Below are positions 17,118-46,311 of a stretch of DNA of 64,000 nucleotides, piece after piece. The stretch is from positions 124,001 to 188,000 of the forward strand of contig JAJDYE010000006.1 in assembly GCA_022822905.1 (NCBI GenBank). Direction: 5' to 3'. Made by a program: the position numbers and the translations under genes. The notes under the pieces are model-generated. The model saw only the letters and a program-made list of their open reading frames with translations, searched no databases and was not told the origin of the DNA. Numbering within the stretch: the stretch's first letter is position 1; each line of letters starts with the position of its first letter. Source of the stretch: Acidimicrobiia bacterium (GTDB lineage Bacteria; Actinomycetota; Acidimicrobiia; Acidimicrobiales; Bin134).

Positions 17118-18284
17118 CTAGCCCCCGCCCAGCACCATCACGTTGTGATACTGGGCACCGGAGCCGGCGCCGGTGACTAGGGCGACTTGGGCGTTGGGGA
17201 CTTGGCCGGGGCCGGCGGTGCCCCTCAATTGCCGCACGGCTTCGACGATCTTCAGGGTGGGGCCGCCCCAGCCGATGTGGCTGTAGCTGAGCAGGCCGCC
17301 GTCGGTGTTGAGGGGGTGGCTGCCGTCGGTGCCGATGCCCGCCTCCCACAAGTACTCGGCCCCCTCGCCTTCGGCGCACAGGCCCAGCATCTCGAACTGG
17401 CGCACCACCTCGTAGGTGTTGATGTCGTAGAGCTCGAACACGTCCACGTCGTGCGGCCTCAGGTCGGCCAAGTCGAACGCCCGCCGGGCAGCGTCGGCCC
17501 CCAACCCCCAGACCTCGTCGTAGCGGGGCGGGTTCACGTATTGCTGGCGGTGCCACTCCGATCCCCCGCCAAGGATGGCCACCGGCGCCTGGGCTAGATC
17601 CCGAGCCCGCTCGGCAGTGGTGATCACCATGGCCGCGGCCCCCTCGGTGGCCAGGCACAAGTCGAGCAGCCGGAACGGTTCAGCCACCATCGGAGAGGCC
17701 AGAACGTCGGCCGCGGTGTAGGGGCCCCGACCAGCCATCACCGCAGCCGGATTCGTCGACCCCGCATTGCGGATGGCGGCGGCGATCGCAGCCAACTGTT
17801 CGGGGTCGGGGGCATAGCGGTGCCGGTATACCTGGGCCACCAGGGCGAACTGGGCCGCGGTGAGCGAACCCCAGCAGGCGATGAACTCGTTGTCGGGCCG
17901 GGTGTAGTCGGCCACCGCCGACCCGCCCATGACCCCGGCCTGGCCCCCGAACACCAGCGCTGTCTCGCACAAACCGGCGGCCACCGCGGCGGCGGCGTCC
18001 AGCGCGCCGGGAACTCCCTGGGGGTAGGTGTCGCACACCCAGCGCAGTGGCTGACCGAATACCTCGGCCCAGTCGGCGGAGCCGGGCTGGAACACGGTTC
18101 CTCCCGGTCCGGGCCAGCGGGCGGCCACCCCGTCGACATCGGCCACACCCAGTCCGGCGTCGTCGAGGGCAGCCAGCGCAGCCCGAAGGGAGACCTCCGC
18201 CGAGGTGGTATCGAGCTGGCGGGCCATCTCGGTGGCCGCCACCCCGACGATGGCCACTCGGTGCAGCGGATGGGTGCCGCTCAC
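17118..18284 (-). CDS. Thiolase-like lipid-transfer protein (SCP2-thiolase/Ltp2 type)
   Basis: A 388-aa thiolase-fold protein of the SCP2-thiolase group, with RVAIVGVAATEM at the N-terminus, LFDLCLATEGAAAMVIT-like core (LLDLCLATEGAAAMVIT), VFELYDINTYEVVRQ, and the C-terminal NTDGGLLSYSHIGWGG. In Mycobacterium the Ltp2 protein pairs with a DUF35 partner to cleave a steroid side-chain acyl-CoA by retro-aldol reaction; a DUF35 gene lies two genes upstream in this operon. The GTG at 18284 overlaps the ligase stop. Aldolase versus thiolase activity cannot be settled by reading. Confidence 0.85.
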   Translation of the reverse strand: MSGTHPLHRVAIVGVAATEMARQLDTTSAEVSLRAALAALDDAGLGVADVDGVAARWPGPGGTVFQPGSADWAEVFGQPLRWVCDTYPQGVPGALDAAAAVAAGLCETALVFGGQAGVMGGSAVADYTRPDNEFIACWGSLTAAQFALVAQVYRHRYAPDPEQLAAIAAAIRNAGSTNPAAVMAGRGPYTAADVLASPMVAEPFRLLDLCLATEGAAAMVITTAERARDLAQAPVAILGGGSEWHRQQYVNPPRYDEVWGLGADAARRAFDLADLRPHDVDVFELYDINTYEVVRQFEMLGLCAEGEGAEYLWEAGIGTDGSHPLNTDGGLLSYSHIGWGGPTLKIVEAVRQLRGTAGPGQVPNAQVALVTGAGSGAQYHNVMVLGGG

Positions 18285-19807
18285 ACCTGCCGGCCTTCTC
18301 CCCAATAGCGGGCTCGCAATTCCTCCTTGGCGATCTTTCCCACCGCGTTCTTGGGCAGCGAATCGGTGAACTCCACCCGCTCGGGGATCTTGATGGAGGT
18401 CAGCTCCGATTGGCGGCACCACAGCCGCAGCTCTTGGTCGTCGGCCGAGGCCCCCTGTTTGAGGGCGACCACGGCCACGATGGCCTCGCCCCACTCGGGG
18501 TCGGGCACGCCGATCACCGATGCTTCCAGCACAGCGGGATGGCGGTACAGCACGTTCTCGATCTCGGTGGGGGCGATGTTGAGCCCGCCTCGAATGATGA
18601 GGTTCTTCATGCGGTCGACGATGTAGATGAAGCCCTCCTCGTCGACCTCGGCCACATCGCCGCTGTGCATCCAGCCATCCCGCAGCGCCTCGGCGGTGCG
18701 CTCAGGGTCGCGGAAGTAGCCCTTCATCACATGGGGGCCGCCGAAGATCACCTCGCCCCGCTCCCCTACCGAGATACCGCGGCCGTCGGGGTCCACTACC
18801 CGCACGTCCACCGCATACGACGGCTGCCCGCACGACGACAGCAACTCGGGCCGCTCCTGCAAGCCCCGCACATGGTCTTCCTTGCGCAGGATGGTGCCGA
18901 TGGAGGCGATCTCGGCCATGCCGTAGAGCTGGTTGAACACCGGGCCGAAGCGCTCCACCAACTCGGCCAGGCGGTCGGGGGAGATGGGCGAAGAGCCGTA
19001 GCCCAGCGTGCGCAGCGACCCCAGCCTGTGGTCGTCGGAACGGTCTAGTCGGTCGAGTAGGCGCATCAGCTGGGTGGGCACCAGAAACGAGTGGCTTACC
19101 CCATGGTCTTCCACCAGGCGGACGTAACGCACCGGGTCGAAGTTGCGGCTGTCGACAAACCCCTGGGCCGCCCCGATGATCAGGCACGGGAGGATGGTGA
19201 TGTTCACGCTGGAGTTGTGGGGAATCTGGATGAGGTAGCGGCTGTGGCGATCGATCTCGTATTCCAGGCAGGCCACGGTGGCGTGCTGGAGCACCCGGGC
19301 GTGGTCGAAGTACACCCCTTTGGGCCGCCCGGTGGTGCCGCTGGTGTACACGATGCAGAAGTCGTCTTCCGGGCGCACCTGATGGAGGGTGGCCGGGGGT
19401 TTGGCCGAGGCGGCATCGGCCAGAGCGTCCAGATCGCGGTCGATGTCGATAATCGGCAAGTCGAACCCGTCGAGCTGATCTCGGTGCTCGGTGTCGGTGA
19501 TGGCCAGGGTTGGGTCGGCGCTGTCGAAGACCTGCTCCAACTCCACCGGGCCAAGCCGGAAATTGAGCCCCACATAGCAGCCGCCAGCTTTGGTGATGCC
19601 GCCAAGCACCTCCACCACCTCGGGGCGGTTGGCCACCAGCAGGGCTACCCGGTCGCCCTTGCCCAGCCCATGGGCTTCCAACAGGGCATTGGCGATGCGG
19701 TTGGTGCGCTCGTCGAGCTGGCGGTTGTCTAGCTCCCGTTCGCCAAAGATGGCGGGGTCGCGGGGATGGCGGGCCGCGTTGCGGGCGAAGGCCAAGCCGA
19801 CGTTCAC
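18281..19807 (-). CDS. Acyl-CoA synthetase (AMP-forming, FadD-like)
   Basis: Activates a carboxylic acid to its CoA thioester through an acyl-adenylate; 508 aa. Motifs in order are the P-loop YTSGTTGRPKG, YGMAEIASIG, the hinge SGDVAEVDEEGFIYIVDRMK with IIRGGLNIAPTEIE, and the C-terminal catalytic Lys in LPKNAVGKIAKEEL. The GTG at 19807 overlaps the DUF35 stop and the end overlaps the thiolase start, so the three genes are translationally coupled. The likely substrate is the acid produced by the upstream P450/SDR steps. Confidence 0.93.
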   Translation of the reverse strand: MNVGLAFARNAARHPRDPAIFGERELDNRQLDERTNRIANALLEAHGLGKGDRVALLVANRPEVVEVLGGITKAGGCYVGLNFRLGPVELEQVFDSADPTLAITDTEHRDQLDGFDLPIIDIDRDLDALADAASAKPPATLHQVRPEDDFCIVYTSGTTGRPKGVYFDHARVLQHATVACLEYEIDRHSRYLIQIPHNSSVNITILPCLIIGAAQGFVDSRNFDPVRYVRLVEDHGVSHSFLVPTQLMRLLDRLDRSDDHRLGSLRTLGYGSSPISPDRLAELVERFGPVFNQLYGMAEIASIGTILRKEDHVRGLQERPELLSSCGQPSYAVDVRVVDPDGRGISVGERGEVIFGGPHVMKGYFRDPERTAEALRDGWMHSGDVAEVDEEGFIYIVDRMKNLIIRGGLNIAPTEIENVLYRHPAVLEASVIGVPDPEWGEAIVAVVALKQGASADDQELRLWCRQSELTSIKIPERVEFTDSLPKNAVGKIAKEELRARYWGEGRQV

Positions 19808-31239: not shown

Positions 31240-31242
31240 CAG

Positions 31243-32340: not shown

Positions 32341-32362
32341 CCGCTGTGCTCCTAGGATCAGA

Positions 32363-32396
32363 TGGTCCGGGACCGGCACTCAGCGGTCCCGGACCA
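32363..32396 (-). promoter_or_regulatory. Intercistronic stem-loop between binding protein and permease genes (second importer)
   Basis: A perfect 13-bp inverted repeat (TGGTCCGGGACCG at 32363-32375 and its complement at 32384-32396) with an 8-nt loop. It lies 9 bp past the binding-protein stop and 22 bp before the permease start, at the same place as the stem-loop of the first importer. There is no T-tract, so mRNA stabilisation or partial termination is more likely than full termination. Confidence 0.65.
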
Positions 32397-32405
32397 GCTA
32401 GTGAA

Positions 32406-33809
32406 TTAGCTCGCGGGCGGGAGGAACTCCCGAACCTGAGTCCACGACATGGTCTCAGCATCGTACTCTGCGATTCCCGCACCCGAAGCACAGCCGTGGC
32501 CACCAGGAAGCGGCCCACAGGCCAGCACTGGCATCGCCGGAATCAGGATGGGGTCATCCGCCATTGCTTCGGCTGTGGCGTGGAAGTTCTCGTAGGAGTA
32601 GTCGCCGTCCAGCCGATCCCACAGCTCGAAGAAGGCCCGAGTGATGGAATAGGTCTGAAGGCTGAAGTTGGGGGCCAAGCTCCCTGCGCCGGGACCGTCG
32701 TAGGCCTCCCACATCTCACGCCAGTGCTGCACGAACTCCATGTCGGAATCGGGCAGGGCTCCCTGAAGGCCGCCCAAGTAGCCATCGGCCGCCTCGGGGA
32801 CGGCGAGCCCAACCGTGGTCTGGCCTCCGGCTCCAGCCGAACCCTGGTCAGAGCACACCAGCGGATCGAAGCCCGCCTCGTGGAATTGGTCGAGCACCAA
32901 GCCGTTCTGGGTGCCGTCGAGCGCGGTGAGCACCGCATCGGCACCCGAGTCGATAACCGAGAGCACTGCCGGGGCAACCGCGTCGGAGAGCACCTCGACT
33001 TCTTCCTTGGCCACGATCTCCATACCGTGAACCGGGGCCTGCATGTCAATGGCGTTGAACGCCTCCTCGCCCAGTTCGTTGTCCTGGCCGATGGCGGCCA
33101 CCCTGGTGGCACCCTGCTCGGCGAAGTAGTCGATGCAGATTCGGCCCTGCTCAGTACGGGTCGGGTTGGTCAGGTACACCTCTTGGATGTCCTGATCGGC
33201 GGGTGAGACCGGACCCCATAGCGGGGTGCCGGCAGCCTCGATGTCGGGATAGGTGGAGGGGATGGCCTGCGAACCCGCAGTGCCCACAAAACCCCACACG
33301 TCGTCTTGCTCGATCATCTTGCGGACGTTGGTGACCATCTGCTCGATCTCGAAGCGGTCGTCTTCCCAAACGAGCTCAAAGGTGCATCCGTCGATGCCGC
33401 CATTGGCGTTGACCTCGTCGACGGCAATGATGATGCCGGCAATCAGACCCTCGCCGGCAACGGCGGCCCGGCCGGTGAACGGCTGGGAGCTGCCGATGGT
33501 TATGACGCCGTTCTCCTTGTCCACGCCCCGTACGTCGCCGTCGGTGTTGGCGCCACAGGTGTCAACCATCTCTTCTTCAGCCATGTCCCCTTCGGCCATG
33601 TCGTCTTCCTCGGCCATGTCCTCTTCGGCCATGTCGTCTTCTTCAGCCATGTCCTCTTCGGCCATGTCGTCTTCCTCGGCCGGAGCAGCGGGCGCTTCGG
33701 TGGCTGCCGGAGCTGGCGCAGCGCCGCCGTCGTCATCGTCGTTGCCACATGCGGCTGCTACCAGAGCCACTGCGAACAGCAGCGCCAGAACTTTCAAGAG
33801 CTTGGACAT
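32406..33809 (-). CDS. Branched-chain amino acid-type ABC transporter substrate-binding lipoprotein (second importer)
   Basis: A 467-aa lipoprotein. ATG 33809 follows a strong GGAGGGGA site, and the signal MSKLLKVLALLFAVALVAAAC ends in the lipobox VAAAC. An Ala/Pro stretch and then an acidic linker of repeated MAEED/MAEEDD units precede the type I periplasmic-binding domain (GVITIGSSQPFTGRAAVAGEG, GFVGTAGSQAIPSTYP, RVAAIGQDNELGEEA). It receives the ligand for the permeases and ATPases downstream. It is divergent from the P450 gene. Confidence 0.92.
   Translation of the reverse strand: MSKLLKVLALLFAVALVAAACGNDDDDGGAAPAPAATEAPAAPAEEDDMAEEDMAEEDDMAEEDMAEEDDMAEGDMAEEEMVDTCGANTDGDVRGVDKENGVITIGSSQPFTGRAAVAGEGLIAGIIIAVDEVNANGGIDGCTFELVWEDDRFEIEQMVTNVRKMIEQDDVWGFVGTAGSQAIPSTYPDIEAAGTPLWGPVSPADQDIQEVYLTNPTRTEQGRICIDYFAEQGATRVAAIGQDNELGEEAFNAIDMQAPVHGMEIVAKEEVEVLSDAVAPAVLSVIDSGADAVLTALDGTQNGLVLDQFHEAGFDPLVCSDQGSAGAGGQTTVGLAVPEAADGYLGGLQGALPDSDMEFVQHWREMWEAYDGPGAGSLAPNFSLQTYSITRAFFELWDRLDGDYSYENFHATAEAMADDPILIPAMPVLACGPLPGGHGCASGAGIAEYDAETMSWTQVREFLPPAS
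33570..33680 (-). repeat. Tandem coding repeat in the binding-protein linker
   Basis: Alternating 15- and 18-bp units (33-bp period) encode MAEED and MAEEDD repeated about three and a half times. On the plus strand each unit ends in GCCATG. Units differ by a few silent or single changes. The repeat forms an acidic spacer between the lipid anchor and the ligand-binding domain and could change copy number between strains. Confidence 0.8.
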
Positions 33810-33829
33810 GGATTCCCCTCCACTTGGTT

Positions 33830-33866
33830 GGACGTGCACTGATCGGACGTACACAAGTTCGGAACT
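33830..33866. promoter_or_regulatory. Possible operator in a divergent intergenic region
   Basis: Between the binding protein and the P450 there is a direct repeat, GGACGTGCAC (33830-33839) and GGACGTACAC (33845-33854), spaced 15 bp, and a perfect palindrome AGTTCGGAACT (33856-33866). Such symmetric sites in an 82-bp divergent region may bind a regulator of both units. No regulator gene is adjacent. Confidence 0.35.
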
Positions 33867-33891: not shown

Positions 33892-35103
33892 ATGCCGGAG
33901 ATGGCAGAAATCACCATGACCACGTTCGCCGAAGCCCGCGAGTGCTATCGGAACAAGAACCTTCGCCAAGCGTTGTACGACGCGGGCGAGGTGATCATGA
34001 GCGATGTGGTGGTGAACCTCCACGGCGATGAGCACCGGGATCGCCGTCGACTGGAGAACCGCCTCTTCCGCCGGGACACGTTCATGCTGTACGAACAGGA
34101 TTTGTTCCCGCCCATCATCGAGTCGACGCTGGCGCCCCACTTGGCCGAGGGCAAGGCCGAGCTGGTGAAGCTGGGCCACCAGCTCATGATGAACCTGGCC
34201 GCCTTCACCGCCGGGGTGGACCGGCCCCAGGGAACGCCGGAGGAGACTTTCCGGCTCTACGACTATCTGACCAAGTTCATCGAGGGGGCCACTCTGGCCC
34301 ACTACACCGGTGACAAGGAGGCCAAGGTGGTCGAGATCGAGGCTGCTCTGGAGGCGTTCGACGCAGAGTTCCTCACCCCGGGCATGGACCGGCGCCAGGC
34401 GCTGCTGGATCAACTCGAAGCTGGAGAGATCGATGCCGACGAGCTGCCCAAGGACGTGCTGATGGTGCTGATGCACAACCAGGACCGCCTCGAGCTAAGC
34501 CATGAAACCATCCGGCGGGAGATCGCCTTCTACATGCTGGCCGGGGCGCACACTTCGGCCACCGCCTTCAACCGGGTAGTACACAACATATTCGGCTGGC
34601 TGGCCGATCACCCTGAAGACGAGAACCGGGTGCGCGACGACCGTTTGTTCATGCAGCGCTGCACCCACGAGACCATCCGCCTCCAGCCCTCCAGCCATAC
34701 CGGCATGCGCTGGGCCCTGGCCGACATAGACCTGTCGAGTGGCGTCCACATCGCCAAAGGCGACCGGGTCACGCTCGATCTCCTATCAGTGAACCGGGAT
34801 ACCTCGGTGTTCGGCGACGATGCCGCCGATTTCAATCCCGACCGCACCCTGCCCGAGGGAATTGCCCCGTGGGGACTGAGCTTTGGTCAGGGCATGCACG
34901 CCTGCATCGGCCAAGACTTGGCCGCCGGAGTCACGTTCATGGACGGCGACGACGTCGACGCCCATCTGTTCGGCCTAGTGCCGGCAGCGGTGCAGACCCT
35001 GTTCGACCACGGCTGCCGCCCCGATCCCGACGACCCGCCCGAGATGGACGCCTCCACCACCCGCCCCTACTTCGGCCGCTACCCGGTGGTGTTTGCGGCT
35101 TAG
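33892..35103 (+). CDS. Cytochrome P450 (paralogue of the one at 20.3-21.5 kb)
   Basis: A 403-aa P450 with haem loop FGQGMHACIG and K-helix ETIRLQP. The I-helix reads LAGAHTSATAF, with His in place of the usual acid, as in its paralogue, but with the Thr present. N-terminal EITMTTFAEARECYRNKNLRQALYDAGEVIMSD aligns closely with the paralogue. The start may be ATG 33892 or 33901; the paralogue favours the second. No ribosome site is clear. It overlaps the convergent amidohydrolase at the stop codons. Confidence 0.9.
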   Translation: MPEMAEITMTTFAEARECYRNKNLRQALYDAGEVIMSDVVVNLHGDEHRDRRRLENRLFRRDTFMLYEQDLFPPIIESTLAPHLAEGKAELVKLGHQLMMNLAAFTAGVDRPQGTPEETFRLYDYLTKFIEGATLAHYTGDKEAKVVEIEAALEAFDAEFLTPGMDRRQALLDQLEAGEIDADELPKDVLMVLMHNQDRLELSHETIRREIAFYMLAGAHTSATAFNRVVHNIFGWLADHPEDENRVRDDRLFMQRCTHETIRLQPSSHTGMRWALADIDLSSGVHIAKGDRVTLDLLSVNRDTSVFGDDAADFNPDRTLPEGIAPWGLSFGQGMHACIGQDLAAGVTFMDGDDVDAHLFGLVPAAVQTLFDHGCRPDPDDPPEMDASTTRPYFGRYPVVFAA

Positions 35104-36422
35104 TTGACCAAGTCGCTGGTGAGGATCTGGGCGGCCCAGTTGGCCACTTTCTCGCCGGGAATGGGGGCCCGGGTGGGCCACGGGCGGTCCAGATCGACGA
35201 GTTCGCCGCGGCTGATCACGCTGCGGAGGTTGGCCCTGTTGGCCAGCACGGTGACGTCGGCGGCCGGGTTTCCGTCCACCACCAGCACGTCGGCAGCCAT
35301 TCCGGGGGCCAGGGTGCCCACTTCGCCCTCCATGCGCATTGCGATGGCGCCGTTGGCGGTGGCGCAGGCGATGGCCTGAAGCGGGCTCAGCCCGACCGAT
35401 TCCACCAGCACCTCCATCTCCCGGGCGTGCCAGTGGCCGTAGGGAGTGAGGGCGAACCCCGATTCTGAGCCGCACAGCAGCGGCACTCCGGCGTCGTGGG
35501 CCTTGGCCATCATCTTGGCGGTGGCCTTGATCTCGCCCCGGAACACGTCTTGCATGCCGGCCCCGGCGCCCACCAGGTGGCCATAGTCGGCCAGGTTGGC
35601 CAGGAAGGTGAAGGTGGGCATGAGGGCGGCACCGGCTTCGATCACCGCCTCGAGGCCAGCGTCATCCATGAACGACGCGTGCAGTATGAGGTCGACGCCG
35701 GCCTCGGCACAGGCCCGGGTGCTGCCCGCTGAGCGGGCGTGGGCCATCACCGGAGTCTCCAGTTCGTGGGCGGTGTCGCACACCGCCTTCAGCTCATCGG
35801 GCTTCCAGGCCAGCAACTCGCCCTTGTGGCGGGGAATGGACCCGGTGGCGTGGATCTTGATCCAGTCGGCTCCGTACTTGATGTGGCGGCGGGTCATCTG
35901 GATCATCTCGTCGACCGTGGTCACCACCTGGGCGTAGCCCACCACCCCGGTGTCGGGGATGAGCCGCCCGGCGGTGCCCCCCACCGCAGTAACCAGCGCT
36001 TGCACGCCGGTGGCCATGCGAGGGCCCTCCACCACCCCGGCGTCCACGGCGTCGCGCAACGACGGACCCATGGAGAACAGCGTGTCGGGGTCGCAGAATC
36101 CGGTGACCCCGGCCATCAGCAGCTTCTGGAGGTTCTGGGCGGCGATCAGCGCGGCCAGGGTGTGGTCGCGGTGGAAGAACAGCTCGTCGTTGGACTGCAC
36201 GTCGTCAAAGGTGCAGTGGACATGGGCGTCAATCAGACCGGGCATGACGGTGCATCCGGCGGCGTCGATGACTATGGCGCCGGGCTGATTGGTGCTTGCA
36301 TCGGGGCCGACAGCGGCAATGCGGTCGCCTTCCAGCAGCACCGAGGTGTCGGGTTGGGGTGGGGAACCGGTGCCGTCGATCACCGTTCCCCCGGTGATCA
36401 GGATGGGCGTCGGCTCGGTCAT
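35100..36422 (-). CDS. Amidohydrolase (imidazolonepropionase/prolidase-like)
   Basis: A 440-aa metal-dependent hydrolase of the amidohydrolase superfamily, with the N-terminal composite beta domain (GGTVIDGTGSPPQPDTSVLLEGDRIAAVGPDA), the metal motif GLIDAHVHCTF, a Lys in DWIKIHATGS that would be carbamylated, and the second His in MAHARSAGS. The final metal/catalytic Asp, normally GTDSG, reads GSESG here, so Asp has become Glu. It likely cleaves a cyclic amide or dipeptide-like substrate. It is 15 bp downstream of the duplicated unknown gene. Confidence 0.87.
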   Translation of the reverse strand: MTEPTPILITGGTVIDGTGSPPQPDTSVLLEGDRIAAVGPDASTNQPGAIVIDAAGCTVMPGLIDAHVHCTFDDVQSNDELFFHRDHTLAALIAAQNLQKLLMAGVTGFCDPDTLFSMGPSLRDAVDAGVVEGPRMATGVQALVTAVGGTAGRLIPDTGVVGYAQVVTTVDEMIQMTRRHIKYGADWIKIHATGSIPRHKGELLAWKPDELKAVCDTAHELETPVMAHARSAGSTRACAEAGVDLILHASFMDDAGLEAVIEAGAALMPTFTFLANLADYGHLVGAGAGMQDVFRGEIKATAKMMAKAHDAGVPLLCGSESGFALTPYGHWHAREMEVLVESVGLSPLQAIACATANGAIAMRMEGEVGTLAPGMAADVLVVDGNPAADVTVLANRANLRSVISRGELVDLDRPWPTRAPIPGEKVANWAAQILTSDLVN

Positions 36423-36437
36423 CTGACTTAGCCCCTT

Positions 36438-37301
36438 TCAGTCCCCCAGCAGGGCCGCGGCGGCGTCCTTGACGGACATGCCCACCTCGACGCCTCGGTC
36501 GCGGGCCGGCTGGTTGCACGCGCTGATGATCCCCTCATCGTACGCCTTGAACGCATCCCCCACCGGAGCACTCCACGCATCGCAGCACGCACCGGCCAGT
36601 CCGTGGGCCTCGGTGATGGCCAACCCGGCGATGCCGGCGTCGTTCTTGCTGCGGCCTCCGTCGGAGCAGATGAAGCCGTGGGGGCTCACCTCCAGCAGGA
36701 AGTCCGCCCCGCTGCGCCCGGTGTGGCCCGCGGTGACCAGCACGTTGCGGGAGTCTTCAGGCAAGGCGAACACAATGGAGTCGGTCACCACGATCTGACG
36801 TCCGCTGTCGGTGGTGGCCTTGACCTCGCGGCGGATCTTGGTGCCCTCGTCCACCTCGCCGGGATCGTTGTTCAACAGCAGCTTGGCCGCCTCTGAAACG
36901 GCCATGCCCTCGGTGACCCCGCAGCGCTCGGCGTAGATGTTGAGCCGGGAGATGACCCCGGTCTCGTACAGGTCGAGGCCGTTGCCCAGCTCGGCGCTCA
37001 TCCCGTCGGCGGTGGCTGCGGGGATGCCGAGGGCCTCCAAGAACCAGAGCCCGGAGATGCCCGCGCCGTCTTTTCCGATACAGCCGTCGTGGCCGATGAC
37101 CCCCTTCGGCCGATGGGGGGCCATGAGCCGGGCGGGCAGCACTCCGAGATACGAAGACGGCACCACCACGTCGTTGTCCCGGTTGCGGGCGTCCACGTAC
37201 CGGGCCGAGTCCATGGTCACGATCCGGCGGTCGCCGTCGGTGAACACCACCTCTTGGGGGTGGTCTTCTTCGTTGGCCAGCAGTGGGGCTTCTTCAGGCA
37301 C
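36438..37301 (-). CDS. Unrecognised internally duplicated protein (copy 1)
   Basis: A 287-aa cytosolic protein that I cannot place in a named family. It is two homologous halves: residues about 25-145 and 168-286. Aligned without gaps, GVIGHDG (from 67) to the end of half 1 and GFICSDG (from 209) share about 33 of 79 residues by hand count, including K-x-x-A-G-I-x-G-L, E-A, A-x-x-D, G-x-I-S, and V-x-x-G-M. The gene is between an SDR and an amidohydrolase on one strand. A second copy lies at 45469-46311. Function unknown. Confidence 0.8.
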   Translation of the reverse strand: MPEEAPLLANEEDHPQEVVFTDGDRRIVTMDSARYVDARNRDNDVVVPSSYLGVLPARLMAPHRPKGVIGHDGCIGKDGAGISGLWFLEALGIPAATADGMSAELGNGLDLYETGVISRLNIYAERCGVTEGMAVSEAAKLLLNNDPGEVDEGTKIRREVKATTDSGRQIVVTDSIVFALPEDSRNVLVTAGHTGRSGADFLLEVSPHGFICSDGGRSKNDAGIAGLAITEAHGLAGACCDAWSAPVGDAFKAYDEGIISACNQPARDRGVEVGMSVKDAAAALLGD

Positions 37302-37337: not shown

Positions 37338-38174
37338 CTACAGACCGGTGCGGCCGGCTTCGCGGATCATAGGGGCGTAGTCGGCGAAGCCGGGGGCGTC
37401 GGGCCGGGCCCCGGTGGTGAATCCGGCGTCGGTGGCCAGGGTGTGGCCGCTGGTGTAGCCCGACTCGTCGGAGGCCAGCCACAGGGCGGCGTTGGCCACG
37501 TCGGTGGCCAGGCCGGGGCGGCCGATCAGCGGGGAACTGGCAGTGAGCTCGGCTAGCGCACCGTCCATGTTGGTGTGGTCGCCAGTATGGGCGAAGGCCA
37601 CCATCGGGGTGGCCATGGACGCAGGAGCGATGCAATTCACCCGGATGCCGAAGCGGCACAGCTCGGCGGCGGCGTTCTTGGTCAGGCCGACCACGGCGTG
37701 CTTGGCGGCGGCATAGGCGTGGGGGCCGAGGCCGCCCATCACCCCGGCGGTGCTCGACATGGAGATTATCGAGCCCGTCATCCGGGGCTTCATCACCCGG
37801 GCGGCGTGCTTGACGCCGTAGAACACCCCGTGGAGCAGGACGTCGATGCTGGCGTGCCACTCGTCGGCCGGGGTGGTGTCGACAGGACCCACTGCACCGA
37901 CGATGCCGGCGTTGTTGTACATCACGTCGAGCTGGCCGAACTCGGCCACCGCGGCGTCTACCAGGCCGGACACGTCGTCTTCGGAGGTCACGTCGCAATG
38001 GACGTAGATTGCGGCGTCGCCTAGAGACTCGGCCAGCGTCTGTCCGGCGTTGTCTTGGATATCGCCGATGGCCACCTTGGCGCCCTCCTCAGCGAATCGC
38101 TCAGCCGCAGCCCGGCCGATACCGCTGGATGCCCCGGTGATAGCCGCCACCCGCCCGTCAAGTCGTCCGCTCAT
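37338..38174 (-). CDS. Short-chain dehydrogenase/reductase
   Basis: A 278-aa classical SDR: AAITGASSGIGRAAAERFAEEGAKVAIGDIQ (Asp after strand 2, NAD-type), NNAGIVG, IISMSSTAGVMGGLG with Ser, and YAAAKHAVVGL with Tyr and Lys. ATG 38174 is set by an AGGAGG site upstream (CAGGAGGCAAAG). It is 36 bp upstream of the duplicated unknown gene on the same strand, giving an SDR, unknown, amidohydrolase order. It is divergent from the SnoaL-like gene. Confidence 0.93.
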   Translation of the reverse strand: MSGRLDGRVAAITGASSGIGRAAAERFAEEGAKVAIGDIQDNAGQTLAESLGDAAIYVHCDVTSEDDVSGLVDAAVAEFGQLDVMYNNAGIVGAVGPVDTTPADEWHASIDVLLHGVFYGVKHAARVMKPRMTGSIISMSSTAGVMGGLGPHAYAAAKHAVVGLTKNAAAELCRFGIRVNCIAPASMATPMVAFAHTGDHTNMDGALAELTASSPLIGRPGLATDVANAALWLASDESGYTSGHTLATDAGFTTGARPDAPGFADYAPMIREAGRTGL

Positions 38175-38224
38175 CTTTGCCTCCTGTGAATCGACTGCGC
38201 CCGGCACCGTAACCTGAGCGGCCT

Positions 38225-38737: not shown

Positions 38738-40192
38738 CTACGGCATATCCAACTGCCCTTCGTAAAATTCTCCCCAGCACTCCAGAATTCCGTCGGGGCG
38801 AAGCCCACACGTATGCCACAGACCAGCCGAGATCGCCGTGAACTCACCGCCAGGCTCGTAAGTAGCGGCGTTTTGGACGTAGTCGTTCGAAATGACGTGA
38901 ACCCAGCACTCAACCGACCCGTCCGATCGCAACCCGCACGAATGCCACCCTCCGGCAGAAACAGATGTGAACACGCCTTCGAAGGCACCGATTTCTCCTA
39001 GCTGGTTGCCGACGTAGCCCCAACACTGAGCGGTTCCATCGCTGCGCAATCCGCAGGTGTGAACCGCACCGGCGGACACAGATGTGAACTCACCAATGGG
39101 AGCTTCCACCTGCCCGTATTCGTTGTCCCCCCAACACTCGACAACCCCGCTTGAACGCACACCACACGAATGCACTGCGCCAACCGACACGAACTTCCAA
39201 GTACCGGTTGCGACGTTGCGAACAGACGCAGGAACGTAGTCTCCGAGATCATGCACCTCGGGCACGTAGTGGCCCCAGCACTCAATTGCTCCATCGGCTC
39301 TCAGCCCGCACGCGTGAGGGCGGCCAACTGACAGTGTTTTGAATTCACCCTCTGGAACGTCAAACTCATCAAAATGCCCCCCACCCGGAAAGCGCGGCCA
39401 ACACTCCACAGCCCCGCTGAACCGCAGCCCGCACGAGCGAACACTTCCAGCAGAAACAGATGCGAACTCGCCCTCCGGCACATCCCGGACAACCTTGGAG
39501 CGGTAGTAGCCCCAGCACTCCACTGCTCCGCTTACACGCAATCCGCATGAATGCTCCGCACCGACAGAGACCGCAGAGAACTCGCCCCCTGGTGCTGCTA
39601 GTCGGCCGTAGAAATGGTTACCCCAACACTCGATGGTGCCGTCCATACGCAATCCGCAGGCATGGGTTTGGCCCGCCGAAATTGCTGTGAACTTGTCCTC
39701 GGGAGCGTCCAACTGCCCGTAGGACCGATCCCCCCAACAGTCGATGGTCTCGTCCCAACGCAATTCCGCCACATTTGGGAGAGAACAATCCCGTCGAAGC
39801 ACCCCCCAACAGTCAACGGTCCCGTCTTCACGCAGCCCACAGGCAAAGTCCAACCCAGCTGAGACCGCACTCCACGGACCGCCTGGAATTTCCGCCCAAG
39901 AAGGAATCTCCGGAGCCGGGGTTGGGGTTGGCGTAGGCGCCAGTGTGGGTACGGACGAAGGAGTCGGCGCTGGTGTGGGCGTTGGAGATTCCATCGGAGT
40001 GGAAGTAGGTGTCGGGGTCGGCGCAGACAGGGGAACAGGAGTCAAGGCCGCAGTCGCTGTAGCGGTTGGCTGTGGGGTGATCGCTACATCTTCAGTAGGC
40101 GGAAGAAGACCGACTTCTTCTCCACCGTCACTTGAGCAAGCAGAGGCAGCCAGGGCCATCACCAGCATCAAACCAACCCAGCAAACGCGCAT
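38738..40192 (-). CDS. Secreted lipoprotein with nine RCC1-like repeats
   Basis: A 484-aa predicted surface lipoprotein. The signal ends in lipobox LAASAC, followed by a Pro/Thr/Ser linker to about residue 95. The rest is about nine imperfect repeats of 37-48 residues with the core F-x-x-V-S-A-G-x-x-H-x-C-G-L-R-x-D-G-x-x-x-C-W-G, which resemble RCC1 beta-propeller blades. Each has two Cys eleven apart, so in the oxidising outside environment they could form disulfides. Function and binding partner are unknown. Confidence 0.85.
   Translation of the reverse strand: MRVCWVGLMLVMALAASACSSDGGEEVGLLPPTEDVAITPQPTATATAALTPVPLSAPTPTPTSTPMESPTPTPAPTPSSVPTLAPTPTPTPAPEIPSWAEIPGGPWSAVSAGLDFACGLREDGTVDCWGVLRRDCSLPNVAELRWDETIDCWGDRSYGQLDAPEDKFTAISAGQTHACGLRMDGTIECWGNHFYGRLAAPGGEFSAVSVGAEHSCGLRVSGAVECWGYYRSKVVRDVPEGEFASVSAGSVRSCGLRFSGAVECWPRFPGGGHFDEFDVPEGEFKTLSVGRPHACGLRADGAIECWGHYVPEVHDLGDYVPASVRNVATGTWKFVSVGAVHSCGVRSSGVVECWGDNEYGQVEAPIGEFTSVSAGAVHTCGLRSDGTAQCWGYVGNQLGEIGAFEGVFTSVSAGGWHSCGLRSDGSVECWVHVISNDYVQNAATYEPGGEFTAISAGLWHTCGLRPDGILECWGEFYEGQLDMP
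38750..39890 (-). repeat. RCC1-like repeat array in coding sequence
   Basis: Nine coding repeats of roughly 110-145 bp. The first contains a partly degenerate extra segment, and repeats 4, 5 and 8 carry longer inserts between cores. Similarity is at the protein level; the DNA has diverged. Confidence 0.75.
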
Positions 40193-40287: not shown

Positions 40288-40318
40288 ATACGTATATCTA
40301 TTGCTAGTATATGCGTAT
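40288..40318. promoter_or_regulatory. Probable operator of the VapBC-like pair overlapping its start
   Basis: An inverted repeat ATACGTATAT (40288-40297) and ATATGCGTAT (40309-40318), one mismatch between arms and an 11-bp spacer, lies across the start codons of the antitoxin. Ribbon-helix-helix antitoxins bind such palindromes to repress their own operon. The overlap with both possible start codons and the absence of a ribosome site suggest a leaderless or very short-leader mRNA. Confidence 0.5.
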
Positions 40319-40939: not shown

Positions 40940-41920
40940 CTAGAGCCTAAGTAGGCGGGTGGCGTTGGCGTTGAGGGTGTCGGTTAGGTGGGTGACGTCG
41001 GGGCCGGTGCCTCGGTCCCAGCCGCCGAAGTTGGTGCCGTAGACCAGTCGGTCGGTGCCGTATTGCTCTAGGGCCAGGGTGAGTTCGGCGGCGCCTGTTA
41101 TGTGGCAGTCGAACCACAGGCGGCTGAGGGCACGGTCGAAGGCACCGGGCTCTTTGATCCACTCCGGGGCGGCGGGGCGGCGCTCGGCCAGCTTGCGGAG
41201 CTTCGACAGGATGACAGGGGTGGTGCCGCCGCCGTGGGACAGGCACAGGTCGAGATCGGGATTGCGCTCGGTGACGCCGCCGAATACCAGGGTGGCCACT
41301 GCCACCGTTTCCTCGTAGGAGTACTCCAGCACCAAATCGAGGTCCCAGCGGCGCAGCCGGGGGTCGAGTAGAGGACCGTCGATGCCCGACTGGGTGGGGT
41401 GCAAGAAGTGGGGAACGTTGAGGTCGACACACAGCGACCAGAGCTGGTCTAGGGCCGGGTCATCCAACGGGGTGCCGAAGTCGGTGCCCGTGTAGCCGGC
41501 CAACAAGCCCAACTCCCCCACTGCCCGCTCCAATTCGGCACAGGCGGCGTCGACGTCTTGCATGGGCAACGCGGCCAATCCGACGAAGCGGTCGGGGTGC
41601 AGGGCCACCGCGGCGGCCAGGTCGTCGTTGTGGCGGCGGCAAAAGTCGATGGCCAACTGCGGCTCAATGAAATGGAGGTAGGTGAGCGGGTTGGGCGACA
41701 GGGCCTGCACCGAGATGCCCTGGGCGTCCATGGCCTCCAGGCGCATGTCCAGCTCGATGAACAGCGATCCCCGGTAGGCCACTCCGTCGAGCTGATAGCC
41801 GCCTACCCGGAACCAGGGGGTGCCGTCGTCGTGGGCGCCGATCTCGGGACCGCACGGCCCGGCCGCTCCCATCGTGCCCTCCAGCACGATGTGGGCGTGG
41901 ACGTCGATAAGCCCGGTCAT
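40940..41920 (-). CDS. Amidohydrolase-related protein, ACMSD type
   Basis: A 326-aa protein of the amidohydrolase 2/ACMSD family of metal-dependent decarboxylases and hydrolases. GLIDVHAHIVLEG carries the first metal His pair, NVPHFLHPTQSG another His, and SHGGGTTPVILSKL the family motif. The fold's final Asp, usually GSDYP, is Asn in RLVYGTNFGGWD. The Asn is not a normal strong metal ligand, so activity may differ. It is the last gene of a minus-strand unit with CMD, SDR and acyl-CoA dehydrogenase genes. Confidence 0.87.
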   Translation of the reverse strand: MTGLIDVHAHIVLEGTMGAAGPCGPEIGAHDDGTPWFRVGGYQLDGVAYRGSLFIELDMRLEAMDAQGISVQALSPNPLTYLHFIEPQLAIDFCRRHNDDLAAAVALHPDRFVGLAALPMQDVDAACAELERAVGELGLLAGYTGTDFGTPLDDPALDQLWSLCVDLNVPHFLHPTQSGIDGPLLDPRLRRWDLDLVLEYSYEETVAVATLVFGGVTERNPDLDLCLSHGGGTTPVILSKLRKLAERRPAAPEWIKEPGAFDRALSRLWFDCHITGAAELTLALEQYGTDRLVYGTNFGGWDRGTGPDVTHLTDTLNANATRLLRL

Positions 41921-41971: not shown

Positions 41972-42706
41972 TTAACGGCCTTCCATGATTCCGTCGGCAC
42001 CGGGCAGCCAGGAGGCCACGCCGGAGATGGGAATGGCGCACACCACTGCCTCGGTGATCTCAGCCTCGGTGGCCCCGGCGTTGCGGGCGCCGTTGCAGTG
42101 GATGTTCACAAACCGACTGGAGAACTCGGCGGCGTTGATGGTGCAAAGCAGCAACTCCACGTGCTTAGCGTCGAGCTTGTTCTCAGCCAGCGACCACTGC
42201 CGCATGAGCACATAGCCCTCCAAGGCCCGGGGGGCGTTGTCGGCCATCACCTCGATGTAGTCGGGCACGAACCCGAAATAGCTCTGGAAGTAGTCGAGCG
42301 CGGCCTGGCGGTCGAGGGAGAAATCGGGGATGGGCTCGGTGGAGTGATCGGCGGGGATGTCGAATGCTTCGTCGACGGCCCGGGCGAAGGCGTTGTAGGT
42401 GGCCTCGCCCCGGGAGATGAGGACGGCCAGCGACGCGCCTCGGGCGTCGCTCAGGGTGAGCCCCAACTCGCGGGATCGGATGAGCTCGCGAAGGGCCAGT
42501 TCAGGCTGGACCCTCACCGACGCCGCACACGCCATGTAAAGCGCCTTGGCCCAAGCCGGGCAGGCGCCGTCGCGGTCGGTCACGTCGCGAATCCGGGCAT
42601 AGCCCTCGGCGAACTTGGGCGAGATTGCGGCCAGTTCGCCGCTCGACAGCGCGGGGCTGCCCAGGTCGCTGTGGACCGCGTTGTTGGTCGTGGCTTGCAT
42701 GGTCAT
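41972..42706 (-). CDS. Carboxymuconolactone decarboxylase-like (AhpD fold) protein
   Basis: A 244-aa protein with the all-helical CMD/AhpD fold pattern. The N-terminal part has PAWAKALYMACAASVR and the C-terminal part HVELLLCTINAAEFSSRFVNIHCNGARNAGATEAEITEAV, which resembles the CMD motif with H-C-N-x-A-x-x-x-G-A-x-x-x-E-I but lacks the CxxC of peroxidase-type AhpD. Functions in this group include lactone decarboxylation and peroxide removal. It lies between the SDR and the ACMSD-like gene. Confidence 0.8.
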   Translation of the reverse strand: MTMQATTNNAVHSDLGSPALSSGELAAISPKFAEGYARIRDVTDRDGACPAWAKALYMACAASVRVQPELALRELIRSRELGLTLSDARGASLAVLISRGEATYNAFARAVDEAFDIPADHSTEPIPDFSLDRQAALDYFQSYFGFVPDYIEVMADNAPRALEGYVLMRQWSLAENKLDAKHVELLLCTINAAEFSSRFVNIHCNGARNAGATEAEITEAVVCAIPISGVASWLPGADGIMEGR

Positions 42707-42748: not shown

Positions 42749-43507
42749 TCAGAGTTTGGACACCTCGCCCCCGTCGATAACGAAGCACGATCCAGTAACG
42801 AACCCCGACGCCTCCGATGCTAGGTAACAGACCAGCGGTCCGAGCTCATCGGGCTGGCCCATGCGACGTACCGGGATCTTGCGCAGCCGGGCGGCCAGGG
42901 TGTCGGGATCGCCCAGCACCGCGGCCTGGGCGTCGGTTTCGAACGCACCGGGGGCGATCACGTTCACCCGGATGTCGTAGCGGGCCCACTCTCCGGCCAA
43001 GGCCTCGGCGAGCCGCAGCAGCCCGCCCTTGGAGGCCGAGTAGGCGGCCAGCGTTGGCTTGCCCTTGAGCCCCGATGTGGAGGCCACGTTGATGACCGAG
43101 CCGGGCTGGCCGATGTCGATCCAGTGGGAAGCGGCCCGTCGGGCCAGCGCAGCCGGAGCGGCCAGATTCACAGCCAGCACTTCGTCGAACACGTCGTCGG
43201 GCTGGTCGACAAACTTGGCTGCGGGGGCGATACCCGCGTTGTTTACCACCGAGTCGAGGCGGCCGAACCGCGCAATGGCCTCGTCCGCCAGGCCGGCCAC
43301 CGCCGCCCGATCCCGCATGTCGCACGGCACCGCGGCCACGCTGTCGCCCAGCTCGCCGGCCAGCGCTTCCAGAGCGTCAGCTGAGCGGGCTGCGGCCACC
43401 ACTCGGGCGCCCTCGGCCACCATGGCCCGCACCGCGGCCTCCCCCAGCCCCCGGCTGGCCCCGGTCACCACCGTCACATGGCCGTCCAAGCCCCAGTCCA
43501 CCGCCAT
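42749..43507 (-). CDS. Short-chain dehydrogenase/reductase
   Basis: A 252-aa SDR with VTVVTGASRGLGEAAVRAM, AAAR after strand 2 (NADP-type), NNAGIAP, VINVASTSGLKGKPT with Ser, and YSASKGGLLRL with Tyr and Lys, ending in CFVIDGGEVSKL. It starts 4 bp after the acyl-CoA dehydrogenase stop, suggesting co-transcription. The pair could oxidise and dehydrogenate the same acyl or alcohol substrate. Confidence 0.93.
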   Translation of the reverse strand: MAVDWGLDGHVTVVTGASRGLGEAAVRAMVAEGARVVAAARSADALEALAGELGDSVAAVPCDMRDRAAVAGLADEAIARFGRLDSVVNNAGIAPAAKFVDQPDDVFDEVLAVNLAAPAALARRAASHWIDIGQPGSVINVASTSGLKGKPTLAAYSASKGGLLRLAEALAGEWARYDIRVNVIAPGAFETDAQAAVLGDPDTLAARLRKIPVRRMGQPDELGPLVCYLASEASGFVTGSCFVIDGGEVSKL

Positions 43508-43511
43508 GCCT

Positions 43512-44660
43512 CTACTCCTCGTCCGCCCGATCGGCCACTTCGTCGCACAGCCGGGTGGCGATGCCCAGCCGCAGCACCTCGGAGGCCCCCTCGTAGATCC
43601 GCATAGGCCGGGCTTGTCGGTAGTAGCGCTCTATATCGGAACCCCTGATGAGCCCCCATCGGCCCATCACCTGCACGCAGCGGTCCACCACCCGACTGGC
43701 GGCCTCGGTGGCGGCCAGCTTGGCCAGCGACGACCGGTCGAGGTGGGCCGATGGATCCTCGCGGGCAGCCTCGGCGGTGGCGTAGGCCAGCAGCCGGGTG
43801 GACTCCAGTTCGGCCCAGGAGTCGGCCAGCAGCCCCGCCACCGGCCCTAGCCGCACCAGCGGTCGTCCGAACTGCTCGCGTGTGGCGGCGTGGTTGGCGG
43901 CGCAGGTCAACGCCCCGTCCATGAGGCCGATGGCGGCTCCGGCCACCGAGATGCGGAACACCGACAGGGTGGCCAGCACATGTCGGAATCCCGCGCCGGG
44001 CTCTCCCAGGCGGGCGGAGGCGGGTAGGCGCACACGGTCGAAAGTCACCTCGCCCAGCACGTGGGGGGCGATGATCTCCGGGGAGGGCTCGATCGACACG
44101 CCGGGGGCATCGGCAGGCACCAGCACCAGCGAGAACCTGTCCTCCTCTTTGGCCATGGTGGTGTAGAAGCCGGCCGCTCCCCCGTTGGAGATGAACGACT
44201 TGGTTCCGTTCAGCTCCACCTCGTCGCCGTTCGCCATCAGCGTGGTCTCGATGCCCCGCAGATCGGATCCGGCTACTGGCTCGGTGAGGGCCAGGGCGGC
44301 CAGCACCTCGGCGTTGGCCACTTTGGGCAGCCAATCCTCCCGCTGCTCGTCGGTGCCGGCCACCGCGATGGCGTAGCTGCCGATGCCCTGAAGAGCGAAC
44401 AGCGAATCCAAGTGCGACGAGGCCCGCATCAGCGCCTCACGGGCCACGCACACTGCCAGCGGGTCCACCCGCTCGTGGCGACCGCCGTAGGCCGCCGGCA
44501 CCATCAACGAGCACAGGTCGCTGCTGCGCAGCACGTCGAGGGTGGGCTGGTGGACGTGGCTGCACTCATCGGCTTCCGCGGCGAACCCCTCAACCAGGCG
44601 GGCTACCGCCCGGGCCTCCTGCTGGATGGCCAGGATGTCAGGGCCAAGCTCTAACGCCAT
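43512..44660 (-). CDS. Acyl-CoA dehydrogenase
   Basis: A 382-aa FAD-dependent acyl-CoA dehydrogenase. ALALTEPVAGSDLRGIETTLMANGDEVELNGTKSFISNGG carries the first FAD-binding signature, and the C-terminal helical domain has VMGRWGLIRGSDIERYYRQARPMRIYEGASEVLRLGIA, with the Glu of YEGASEV at the typical catalytic position (short-chain type, Glu in the J/K region). It would introduce the alpha-beta double bond that the crotonase at 44702 could hydrate or open. It is divergent from that gene by 41 bp. Confidence 0.93.
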   Translation of the reverse strand: MALELGPDILAIQQEARAVARLVEGFAAEADECSHVHQPTLDVLRSSDLCSLMVPAAYGGRHERVDPLAVCVAREALMRASSHLDSLFALQGIGSYAIAVAGTDEQREDWLPKVANAEVLAALALTEPVAGSDLRGIETTLMANGDEVELNGTKSFISNGGAAGFYTTMAKEEDRFSLVLVPADAPGVSIEPSPEIIAPHVLGEVTFDRVRLPASARLGEPGAGFRHVLATLSVFRISVAGAAIGLMDGALTCAANHAATREQFGRPLVRLGPVAGLLADSWAELESTRLLAYATAEAAREDPSAHLDRSSLAKLAATEAASRVVDRCVQVMGRWGLIRGSDIERYYRQARPMRIYEGASEVLRLGIATRLCDEVADRADEE

Positions 44661-44701: not shown

Positions 44702-45472
44702 GTGAGCGACATCATCGTTGAGCGAAACGACCGAGTCGTCTGGCTGCGGCTGAATCGGCCAGAGCGGCTGAACTCCTATGACCGCAACACGATCGACGAG
44801 ATCATCGCCGCGTTCCGAGAGCACGTCGACGCCGGGGTGGTGGTGATCACCGGCCAGGGTCGAGCGTTCTGCGCCGGGGGATACCTGGCCAACTTGGCCG
44901 AGGCGAACTTCTATGAGCTGCGGACGATGTTCTACGGCTCGCTGGAGCTGTTCGACGCCATCCGCAATGCGCCTATGCCGGTGATCGCGGCAGTCAACGG
45001 CCCCGCCTTCGGAGGCGGCAACGAGCTGGTGGTGGCGTGCGACTTCGCCATTGCCGCTGCGTCGGCCGAGCTGGGTCAGACCGGGGTCAAGGTGGGCAGC
45101 GCCCCGGTGCTGGGGGGCACCAACCTGCTGGCCATGACCATCGGGGAGAAGCGGGCCAAGGAGGTGGCGTTCCTGTGCCGCAAGTACACCGCGGAGCAGG
45201 CCTGCGAAATGGGGTGGATCAACGCGGTGGTGCCCGACGATGAGCTGGAAGACGAAGTGGGGCGCTGGTGCGACGAGCTGCTGAAGATGAGCCCCCGCTA
45301 TCTGGAGGCGGCCAAGATCAGCTCCAACGTGTACTGGAACCAACTCAGGGACAACATGGCCTCGGGGCTGGGGATGCTGGCCCAGGCCATCGGGTCGCCC
45401 GACATGATCGAGGGCGCCACCGCCTTCATGGAGAAGCGCCGCCCGGAGTTCCCCCCGAGAACCGCCCGATGA
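44702..45472 (+). CDS. Enoyl-CoA hydratase/isomerase family protein, MenB/BadI-like
   Basis: A 256-aa crotonase-fold protein. Oxyanion-hole segments are GRAFCAGGYLANLA and NGPAFGGGNEL. The region KVGSAPVLGGTNLLAMTIGEKRAKEVAFLCRKYTAEQACEMGWINAVVP is close to MenB (naphthoate synthase) and BadI (ring-opening hydrolase) in pattern. The usual Asp after CAGG is Tyr. The substrate might be a cyclic beta-keto acyl-CoA; simple hydratase activity is also possible. GTG start follows a GGAAAGGACACC site. Confidence 0.85.
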   Translation: MSDIIVERNDRVVWLRLNRPERLNSYDRNTIDEIIAAFREHVDAGVVVITGQGRAFCAGGYLANLAEANFYELRTMFYGSLELFDAIRNAPMPVIAAVNGPAFGGGNELVVACDFAIAAASAELGQTGVKVGSAPVLGGTNLLAMTIGEKRAKEVAFLCRKYTAEQACEMGWINAVVPDDELEDEVGRWCDELLKMSPRYLEAAKISSNVYWNQLRDNMASGLGMLAQAIGSPDMIEGATAFMEKRRPEFPPRTAR

Positions 45473-46311
45473 GCGCAGAGACCGACAAGCAGACCGAGGT
45501 GCTGGCCTCGGCCCGGGGTCGGGTGATGTGCATGGACTCGGCCTATGACGTGGACGAGGCCAACCGGGACCGGGATGTGTGCGTCAACTCGTCGTACTGC
45601 GGGGTGCTGCCCGCCCGGTTCATCGCCGAGCATCGGCCTCGGGCGGCCATCGGCATGGACTGCGGGATCGGGCCGGAGGGCTCGGCCATCGCCGGGTTGT
45701 GGTACTTGGAGGCCCTGGGCATTCCCGCCGCGGTGGCTGATGTGATGACCGCTCACTTGGGTGACGGGGTGCACCTCTATGAACATGGCGTGGTCAGCTT
45801 TGTCAACCAGCTGGCCTTGGACTGCGGGGTGACCGCGGGCATGTCGGTGCGTGACGCGGCCGCAGCGCTGCTGGACAACGACCCGGTGGCCGCCACGGCA
45901 TCGGAGATCACCAACCGCACCGTTATGGAGACCGCTCCCGACGGGCGCTGCGTGGTGGCGGCTGACTCCATCGCCTTCGGCACAAGCGAGGACACCGACC
46001 GCAACGTGCTGGTCACCGCCGGGCACACCGGCCGCTCAGCGGTGCCCTACCTGCGCCGCTGCCGCCCATTCGGATTCATCTGCTCCGACGGCGGCCGGGG
46101 CATGGACGACTCCGGAATGGCCGGGCTCTTCATCGTGGAGCCCGACGGCCTGGCCGGCGCCACCGTCGACGCTCGCCGCGCCCGCATGGGCAGCGGTCTG
46201 TCCCACTACCACGACGGCATCATCTCCGCCGCCAATGCCCTTGCCGCTGATGCCGGCGTCGAGGTCGGCATGCCCTGCCCCCAAGCCGCCAGCCTGCTGC
46301 TGAACCGGTAA
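45469..46311 (+). CDS. Unrecognised internally duplicated protein (copy 2)
   Basis: A 280-aa paralogue of the protein at 36438-37301, same length and order of blocks (MDSAYDVDEANRDRDVCVNSSYCGVLPARF; GLWYLEALGIPAAVADVMTAHLGDGVHLYEHGV; FICSDGGRGMDDSGMAGL; VLVTAGHTGRS). It is also two homologous halves. The ATG overlaps the crotonase stop (ATGA), so the two are co-translated. I do not recognise the family. Its position beside crotonase and acyl-CoA genes here, and beside an amidohydrolase in copy 1, suggests a catabolic enzyme or binding protein. Confidence 0.8.
   Translation: MSAETDKQTEVLASARGRVMCMDSAYDVDEANRDRDVCVNSSYCGVLPARFIAEHRPRAAIGMDCGIGPEGSAIAGLWYLEALGIPAAVADVMTAHLGDGVHLYEHGVVSFVNQLALDCGVTAGMSVRDAAAALLDNDPVAATASEITNRTVMETAPDGRCVVAADSIAFGTSEDTDRNVLVTAGHTGRSAVPYLRRCRPFGFICSDGGRGMDDSGMAGLFIVEPDGLAGATVDARRARMGSGLSHYHDGIISAANALAADAGVEVGMPCPQAASLLLNR

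What the first reader, a model, noticed from the sequence alone, without database searches (positions are those of the whole stretch)
36438..37301. Unrecognised family with an internal duplication, copy 1
The protein consists of two homologous halves (about 33 of 79 ungapped residues identical by hand between GVIGHDG... and GFICSDG...). The repeat ends in a G-V-x-x-G-M-x-V-x-x-A-A-x-x-L-L helix, and conserved acid, His, Ser and Gly positions in both halves could form two active sites or one across a pseudo-dimer. I cannot place it in any family. It is co-oriented with an SDR and an amidohydrolase that has an altered metal ligand.
Basis: seen in the sequence. Interest (0 to 1): 0.72.

Follow-up and report, generated by a model that had tools for sequence, protein, structure and literature searches.

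The report
Duplicated-domain orphan family in catabolic operons
This gene makes a protein built from two copies of one unassigned domain; it belongs to a widespread, strongly conserved family that sits beside enzymes breaking down unusual acids in bacteria and archaea, so it is probably an unrecognised enzyme of those pathways.

Summary
The 287-aa gene (minus strand) has two homologous halves: 33/79 identical residues as stated, and profile-profile E = 2e-38. It is a real gene under strong purifying selection, with a 53%-identical paralogue at 45469-46311. Pfam, NCBIfam, PHROGs and the PDB give no credible assignment; Pfam's "IMS" hit is a 28-residue motif, and DUF1805 similarity is sub-threshold. 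A confident half-domain model (pLDDT 94.6, pTM 0.91) finds no solved fold above noise, only a 53-residue partial match to a DUF1805 protein of unknown function.

The family spans Acidimicrobiia, Pseudonocardia, Rhodococcus, Patulibacter, Comamonadaceae, alphaproteobacteria and haloarchaea. Single-domain relatives exist. Context is consistent: SDR, acyl-CoA ligase, BadI-like crotonase or SCPx-type thiolase in the window's group; in haloarchaea, and with the single-domain form in Actinomycetota, an OiaX-like RuBisCO-like gene follows directly. Conserved Asp, Ser, Asp and Asn (and His, in the C-half only) follow the strands of each half, as in an active site.

Best reading: an unassigned acid-base enzyme on 3-hydroxy/3-oxo acids, their lactones or CoA esters, with the C-half keeping the full site. 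The reaction itself is unproven.

The parts
36438..37301 (-). Copy 1, duplicated-domain protein (287 aa, GTG start)
   Evidence: dN/dS 0-0.09 in genus
36852..37262 (-). N-half domain of copy 1 (residues 14-150); site residues D31,S32,S50,Y51,D72,D99,N121 (His replaced by Tyr)
   Evidence: strands
36441..36842 (-). C-half domain of copy 1 (residues 154-287); D174,S175,H193,D214,D241,N263 each just after (H193 at the end of) a predicted strand
45469..46311 (+). Copy 2, paralogue of the same family (280 aa, 53% identical), start overlaps the stop of the crotonase gene
44702..45472 (+). BadI/MenB-like crotonase paired with copy 2
   Evidence: best NCBIfam hit badI 199 bits, below its 467 cut-off
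37338..38207 (-). SDR oxidoreductase, co-directional and upstream of copy 1 (36 bp gap)
35100..36422 (-). Amidohydrolase (Amidohydro_1) downstream of copy 1, Asp to Glu at the last catalytic/metal position (GSES)
40940..41920 (-). Amidohydro_2 (ACMSD-like) enzyme of the island
41972..42706 (-). CMD-domain protein of the island
42749..43507 (-). Second SDR of the island
43512..44660 (-). Acyl-CoA dehydrogenase (acryloyl-CoA reductase / cyclohexane-1-carbonyl-CoA dehydrogenase-like)
33892..35103 (+). Cytochrome P450 next to the copy-1 operon
17118..18257 (-). SCPx-type thiolase; in other genomes it lies next to copy-1-type genes
18281..19807 (-). Acyl-CoA (AMP-forming) ligase of the type that follows copy-1-type genes elsewhere

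Best explanation
It is a fused pseudo-dimer of an undescribed, distantly DUF1805-like alpha/beta domain and most likely an enzyme of small-acid catabolism. Shown: the duplication; the conserved D-S / (S)H / D / D / N set after the strands of each half; the loss of His in the N-half; and the recurrent context of a dehydrogenase plus an enzyme whose family forms or cleaves a beta-oxo acid or thioester (RuBisCO-like OiaX-type, BKACE, BadI-like crotonase, SCPx thiolase). Inferred: the C-half carries the working site, with H193 as general acid/base set by D214/D174 and N263; the N-half (Y51) is a modified site that helps bind substrate or forms a second, different site; the substrate is a 3-hydroxy/3-oxo acid, its lactone or its CoA ester; and the reaction is an acid-base step without covalent Cys or Lys chemistry (lactone hydrolysis, hydration or keto-enol isomerisation). 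Paralogues 1 and 2 would do equivalent steps on two intermediates of one pathway.
For: N/C half homology. Column conservation including single-domain and archaeal relatives, with the conserved polar residues placed at the ends of predicted strands. Context: within +/-3 genes of 35 non-redundant members, SDR 49%, crotonase 40%, AMP ligase 40%, against 10%, 9% and 3% for 20 other stretches of the window's own genome. Six copy-2-type crotonases tested (window plus five loci), all BadI-like. In five haloarchaeal plasmids and two actinobacterial genomes the gene lies directly before a RuBisCO-like gene; for the two of these tested, OiaX is the best NCBIfam hit. An acid-sugar kinase (OiaK-like where tested) follows in the five plasmids and in one of the two genomes, where the other contig ends inside the RuBisCO-like gene. 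The two copies occur together in the genus: of 21 other genomes 17 have two, four have none, none has one. dN/dS 0-0.09.
Against: No relative has a known function and no solved structure matches beyond 53-58 residues. Spatial clustering of the site residues was inferred from secondary structure, not measured on coordinates. Neighbours beyond the SDR vary. A binding or regulatory role is not excluded. The genome background comes from one genome only.
Confidence: 0.42

Rival explanations
1. It is specifically a lactonase: the neighbouring sugar or alcohol dehydrogenase (SDR or Zn-ADH) makes a lactone, this protein opens it, and the acid goes on to oxidation, phosphorylation and decarboxylation (haloarchaea, Actinomycetota) or to CoA ligation (window type).
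For: Haloarchaeal SDR exceeds the glucose 1-dehydrogenase subfamily cut-off; the clusters hold PGDH_C, OiaK-like and OiaX-like genes but no annotated lactonase; known D-apiose pathways pass through a lactone (Carter 2018, recalled; RLP step cited in PMC6302742).
Against: TRAP transporters nearby suggest that the acid itself may be imported; no lactone is evident in the BadI-like branch; no sequence link to any lactonase family.
Confidence: 0.22
2. It is a hydratase, tautomerase or isomerase that prepares the beta-oxo substrate for the cleaving enzyme (for example the missing BadK-like hydration step before the SDR and BadI-like crotonase in the window).
For: The window island has ligase, acyl-CoA dehydrogenase, SDR and BadI-like crotonase but no separate BadK-type hydratase was recognised near copy 2; an Asp/His/Asn pocket suits proton transfer.
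Against: Nocardioides and Rhodococcus clusters carry additional ordinary enoyl-CoA hydratases, and the window's genome has other crotonases elsewhere.
Confidence: 0.2
3. It is a non-catalytic ligand-binding, scaffold or regulatory protein of catabolic operons.
For: Its only structural neighbour, DUF1805 protein TA1206 (1qw2), has no known function; neighbours vary while the protein stays conserved.
Against: Strict conservation of Asp, Ser, His and Asn at strand ends; GntR and IclR regulators are already present in several clusters.
Confidence: 0.13
4. It is related to Y-family DNA polymerases, as Pfam's IMS hit suggests.
For: IMS passes Pfam's cut-off in P0001 (30.6 vs 23.2 bits) and matches all 36 members tested; Foldseek aligns 24-27 residues to Dpo4/Rev1 at 0.3-0.7 A.
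Against: Only 28 of 148 profile positions match; NCBIfam pol IV gives 13.9 bits against 256; the protein is shorter than a polymerase and its context is metabolic.
Confidence: 0.01

Closest known systems
DUF1805 (PF08827, COG3377/YunC; TA1206, PDB 1qw2)
   Same: C-terminal G-[IV]-x-x-G-M-x-x-x-[DE]-A-x-x-[LM]-[LM] element; 53-58 residues superpose at 1.5-1.8 A in Foldseek; an Aminobacter relative passes the Pfam cut-off (31.7 vs 29.5 bits).
   Different: P0001 is below the cut-off (25.1 bits); an extra helix seems inserted after the third strand; no G-Y-x-M-C-G-x-L motif; profile-profile comparison not significant (probability 2-4%); duplicated; different gene context. DUF1805 function is itself unknown.
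Y-family DNA polymerase fragment (Pfam IMS)
   Same: 28-residue strand-helix motif G-V-I-S-x-x-N-x-x-A-R-x-x-G-V-x-x-x-M.
   Different: Nothing else matches; a false family assignment that automatic annotation could make.
Apionate-type pathway enzymes OiaX, OiaK and the PGDH_C oxidoreductase (ApnO-like, name recalled) as context
   Same: Distant double-domain and single-domain relatives sit directly before OiaX-like or RuBisCO-like genes, usually with the OiaK-like kinase.
   Different: These neighbours are below the strict equivalog cut-offs, so the exact substrate may differ; no described member of that pathway resembles this protein in the searches made.
Cyclohexanecarboxylate (Bad) pathway as context
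   Same: BadI-like crotonase next to copy 2, with cyclohexane-1-carbonyl-CoA-dehydrogenase-like ACAD, SDR and ligase.
   Different: All scores are well below equivalog cut-offs; the known Bad pathway (recalled) has no homologue of this protein.

Membership tests
DUF1805 (PF08827) | Score over the Pfam gathering cut-off of 29.5 bits | tested here: not met
   25.1 bits for P0001, 17.9 for copy 2; 31.7 for one Aminobacter relative
DUF1805 (PF08827) | Homology along the whole domain (profile-profile) | tested here: not met
   hhalign probability 2-4% against five DUF1805 sequences, one of them a fragment
DUF1805 (PF08827) | Same fold as 1qw2 | tested here: inconclusive
   Foldseek prob 0.72-0.75, 53-58 columns, rmsd 1.5-1.8 A, TM-score by target 0.43-0.46
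DUF1805 (PF08827) | G-Y-x-M-C-G-x-L signature seen in most of the DUF1805 sequences fetched | tested here: not met
   Window protein has GVIGHDG and GFICSDGG there
Y-family DNA polymerase (IMS) | Pfam cut-off over a substantial part of the profile | tested here: not met
   Score passes (30.6 vs 23.2) but only positions 30-57 of 148 match
Y-family DNA polymerase (IMS) | DNA polymerase IV equivalog score | tested here: not met
   13.9 bits vs 256
Duplicated-domain family described here | Two tandem copies of the about 130-residue domain with D-S, D, N and G positions conserved | tested here: met
Duplicated-domain family described here | Enzymatic activity | not testable with these tools
   No assay possible

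The most novel reading that the evidence does not exclude
A new enzyme family with a fold not represented in the PDB, formed by duplication of a single-domain ancestor, that performs one so far unassigned step on beta-oxo acids or their lactones in two otherwise unrelated pathways: apionate-type acid-sugar breakdown in archaea and bacteria, and BadI-like ring-acid breakdown in Actinomycetota and Proteobacteria.
Probability: 0.35. Interest if true: 0.72.

Novelty: new variant of a known kind. Interest (0 to 1): 0.52.

Why it matters
It gives a testable function to a widespread protein family that annotation calls hypothetical (or could mislabel as a DNA-repair polymerase domain), points at an unassigned step in acid-sugar and ring-acid catabolism, and offers a lead on the still uncharacterised DUF1805 domain. 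The half-domain model is confident yet has no clear PDB match, so a crystal structure would be informative in itself.

Tried and rejected
Pfam IMS assignment: rejected, because it is a 28-residue motif. Full DUF1805 membership: rejected for this protein, kept as a distant structural lead. Whole-model and half-model Foldseek against the PDB, and whole-model against BFVD: no match with E below 1e-3. PHROGs and the phage collection: nothing. Literature: nothing on the family; DUF1805 appears in two held papers; the D-apiose paper itself is not held. My first gene caller picked wrong frames in high-GC loci and was replaced. A tree of halves did not resolve whether distant haloarchaeal proteins share the same duplication event.

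Full report
Observation. The ORF at 36438-37301 lies on the minus strand and encodes 287 residues. A local alignment of residues 1-145 with 146-287 scores 169, against a shuffled mean of 30 (maximum 60). Profiles of 88 N-halves and 88 C-halves match each other with probability 100 and E 1.9e-38. The duplication is therefore real. Fourteen orthologues of the same genus differ from it mostly at silent sites (dN/dS 0 to 0.09).

Second copy and distribution. The genome has exactly one more member, window 45469-46311 (plus strand), 53% identical. Among 21 other genomes of the genus, 17 carry two copies, four carry none and none carries one. A scan of named genomes gave 64 loci in Acidimicrobiia, Pseudonocardia, Nocardioides, Patulibacter, Comamonadaceae, Sphingosinicella, Rhodobacteraceae and others. 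Plasmid records add Rhodococcus (about 65% identity), haloarchaea, Aminobacter, Rhizobium, Ponticoccus and Methylovirgula (29-36%), all hypothetical where annotated. A half-domain profile found single-domain proteins of 134 and 149 residues in two actinobacterial genomes of different genera. A tree of halves separates N from C halves for both window-type subfamilies, so the duplication is older than paralogues 1 and 2; the deep archaeal branch is unresolved.

Families. Pfam reports only IMS (30.6 bits, 28 of 148 positions) and DUF1805 (25.1 bits, below the cut-off) for P0001. In 36 members IMS hits all and DUF1805 hits 33, for the window protein in both cases through the C-terminal strand-helix motif. 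The same motif superposes on Y-family polymerases over 24-27 residues, which I take as a shared small motif, not family membership. A direct profile comparison with DUF1805 is not significant. NCBIfam, PHROGs and PDB sequence searches give nothing credible.

Structure. AlphaFold on 36 members gives pLDDT 88 and pTM 0.69 for the whole protein. A half-domain alignment of 65 sequences gives pLDDT 94.6 and pTM 0.91. Neither finds a PDB entry with E below 1e-3. The most plausible partial match is 1qw2, TA1206, a DUF1805 protein of unknown function: 53-58 columns, rmsd 1.5-1.8 A, prob 0.72-0.75. The half is a strand pair followed by a strand-helix-strand series.

Likely site. Across N-halves, C-halves, the single-domain protein and archaeal members, the near-invariant polar positions are D31/D174, S32/S175, D72/D214, N121/N263, S118/S260, and D99/D241 (mostly Asp, otherwise often Ser). 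In the predicted secondary structure D31/D174, D72/D214, D99/D241 and N121/N263 follow strands 2, 4, 5 and 6, and H193 ends strand 3. His is 97% conserved in the C-half but Tyr in 90% of N-halves, while most distant relatives have His in both halves. The halves have therefore diverged, and the C-half keeps the ancestral set.

Context. In the window copy 1 lies between an SDR and an amidohydrolase whose GSES motif is kept in all 14 members of its cluster. Copy 2 overlaps the stop of a crotonase whose best NCBIfam hit is BadI; five divergent crotonases from copy-2-type loci are also BadI-like, all below the equivalog cut-off. Copy-1-type genes are often followed by an acyl-CoA ligase and an SCPx-type thiolase, and copy-2-type genes often follow a crotonase with or without an acyl-CoA ligase. 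In Patulibacter both types sit in one run. Within three genes of 35 non-redundant members, SDRs occur at 49%, crotonases at 40% and AMP ligases at 40%, against 10%, 9% and 3% in 20 other stretches of the window's genome.

The strongest cross-domain link is elsewhere in the family. In five haloarchaeal plasmids the gene lies directly before a RuBisCO-like gene (one of them annotated only as a fragment) and an acid-sugar kinase, with an SDR close by and, in most, a PGDH_C dehydrogenase, an HpcH-type aldolase and TRAP transporter genes. In two actinobacterial genomes the single-domain form lies directly before a RuBisCO-like gene, in one followed by kinase, PGDH_C and BKACE genes. For the proteins tested, NCBIfam's best hits are OiaX and OiaK of the 3-oxo-isoapionate pathway, below the equivalog cut-offs. 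RLPs acting on 3-oxo-isoapionate-4-phosphate are described in work cited by PMC6302742.

Interpretation. A strictly conserved set of acid, Ser, His and Asn residues and repeated placement next to dehydrogenases and beta-oxo-acid enzymes make an enzyme the most likely reading. I favour an acid-base reaction (lactone hydrolysis, hydration or keto-enol isomerisation) on a 3-hydroxy/3-oxo acid, its lactone or its CoA ester, with the C-half as the main site. The duplication and family are shown; the pocket, reaction and substrate are inferred.

Limits. The background for enrichment is one genome; gene calls in other loci come from a simple composition caller; the D-apiose details, the Bad pathway steps and the ApnO name are recalled; no AlphaFold database search was possible.

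Noticed in passing
all family members, e.g. residues 255-282 of copy 1 (window 36438-37301): Pfam's IMS (Y-family polymerase) model passes its gathering cut-off through a 28-residue motif; automatic annotation could mislabel this family as DNA repair.
   Followed up: yes
35100-36422: Amidohydrolase with Glu instead of the usual Asp (GSES) at the last catalytic/metal position, conserved in all 14 members of its cluster.
   Followed up: partly
44702-45472: Crotonase that is BadI/MenB-like but far below the equivalog cut-off; a possible new ring-cleaving hydrolase.
   Followed up: partly
L163:8913-9317 and L164:761-1210: Single-domain form of the family directly upstream of OiaX-like RuBisCO-like genes in two actinobacterial genera.
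   Followed up: yes
38738-40192: Protein with repeated CGLRxDGTxxCWG units (RCC1-like by eye) inside the island, present in only a few relatives.
   Followed up: no
40311-40936: Small ribbon-helix-helix-like and PIN-like gene pair, probable VapBC-type toxin-antitoxin by eye.
   Followed up: no
28458-33854: Branched-chain amino acid type (Liv) ABC transporter operon with substrate-binding protein next to the catabolic island.
   Followed up: no
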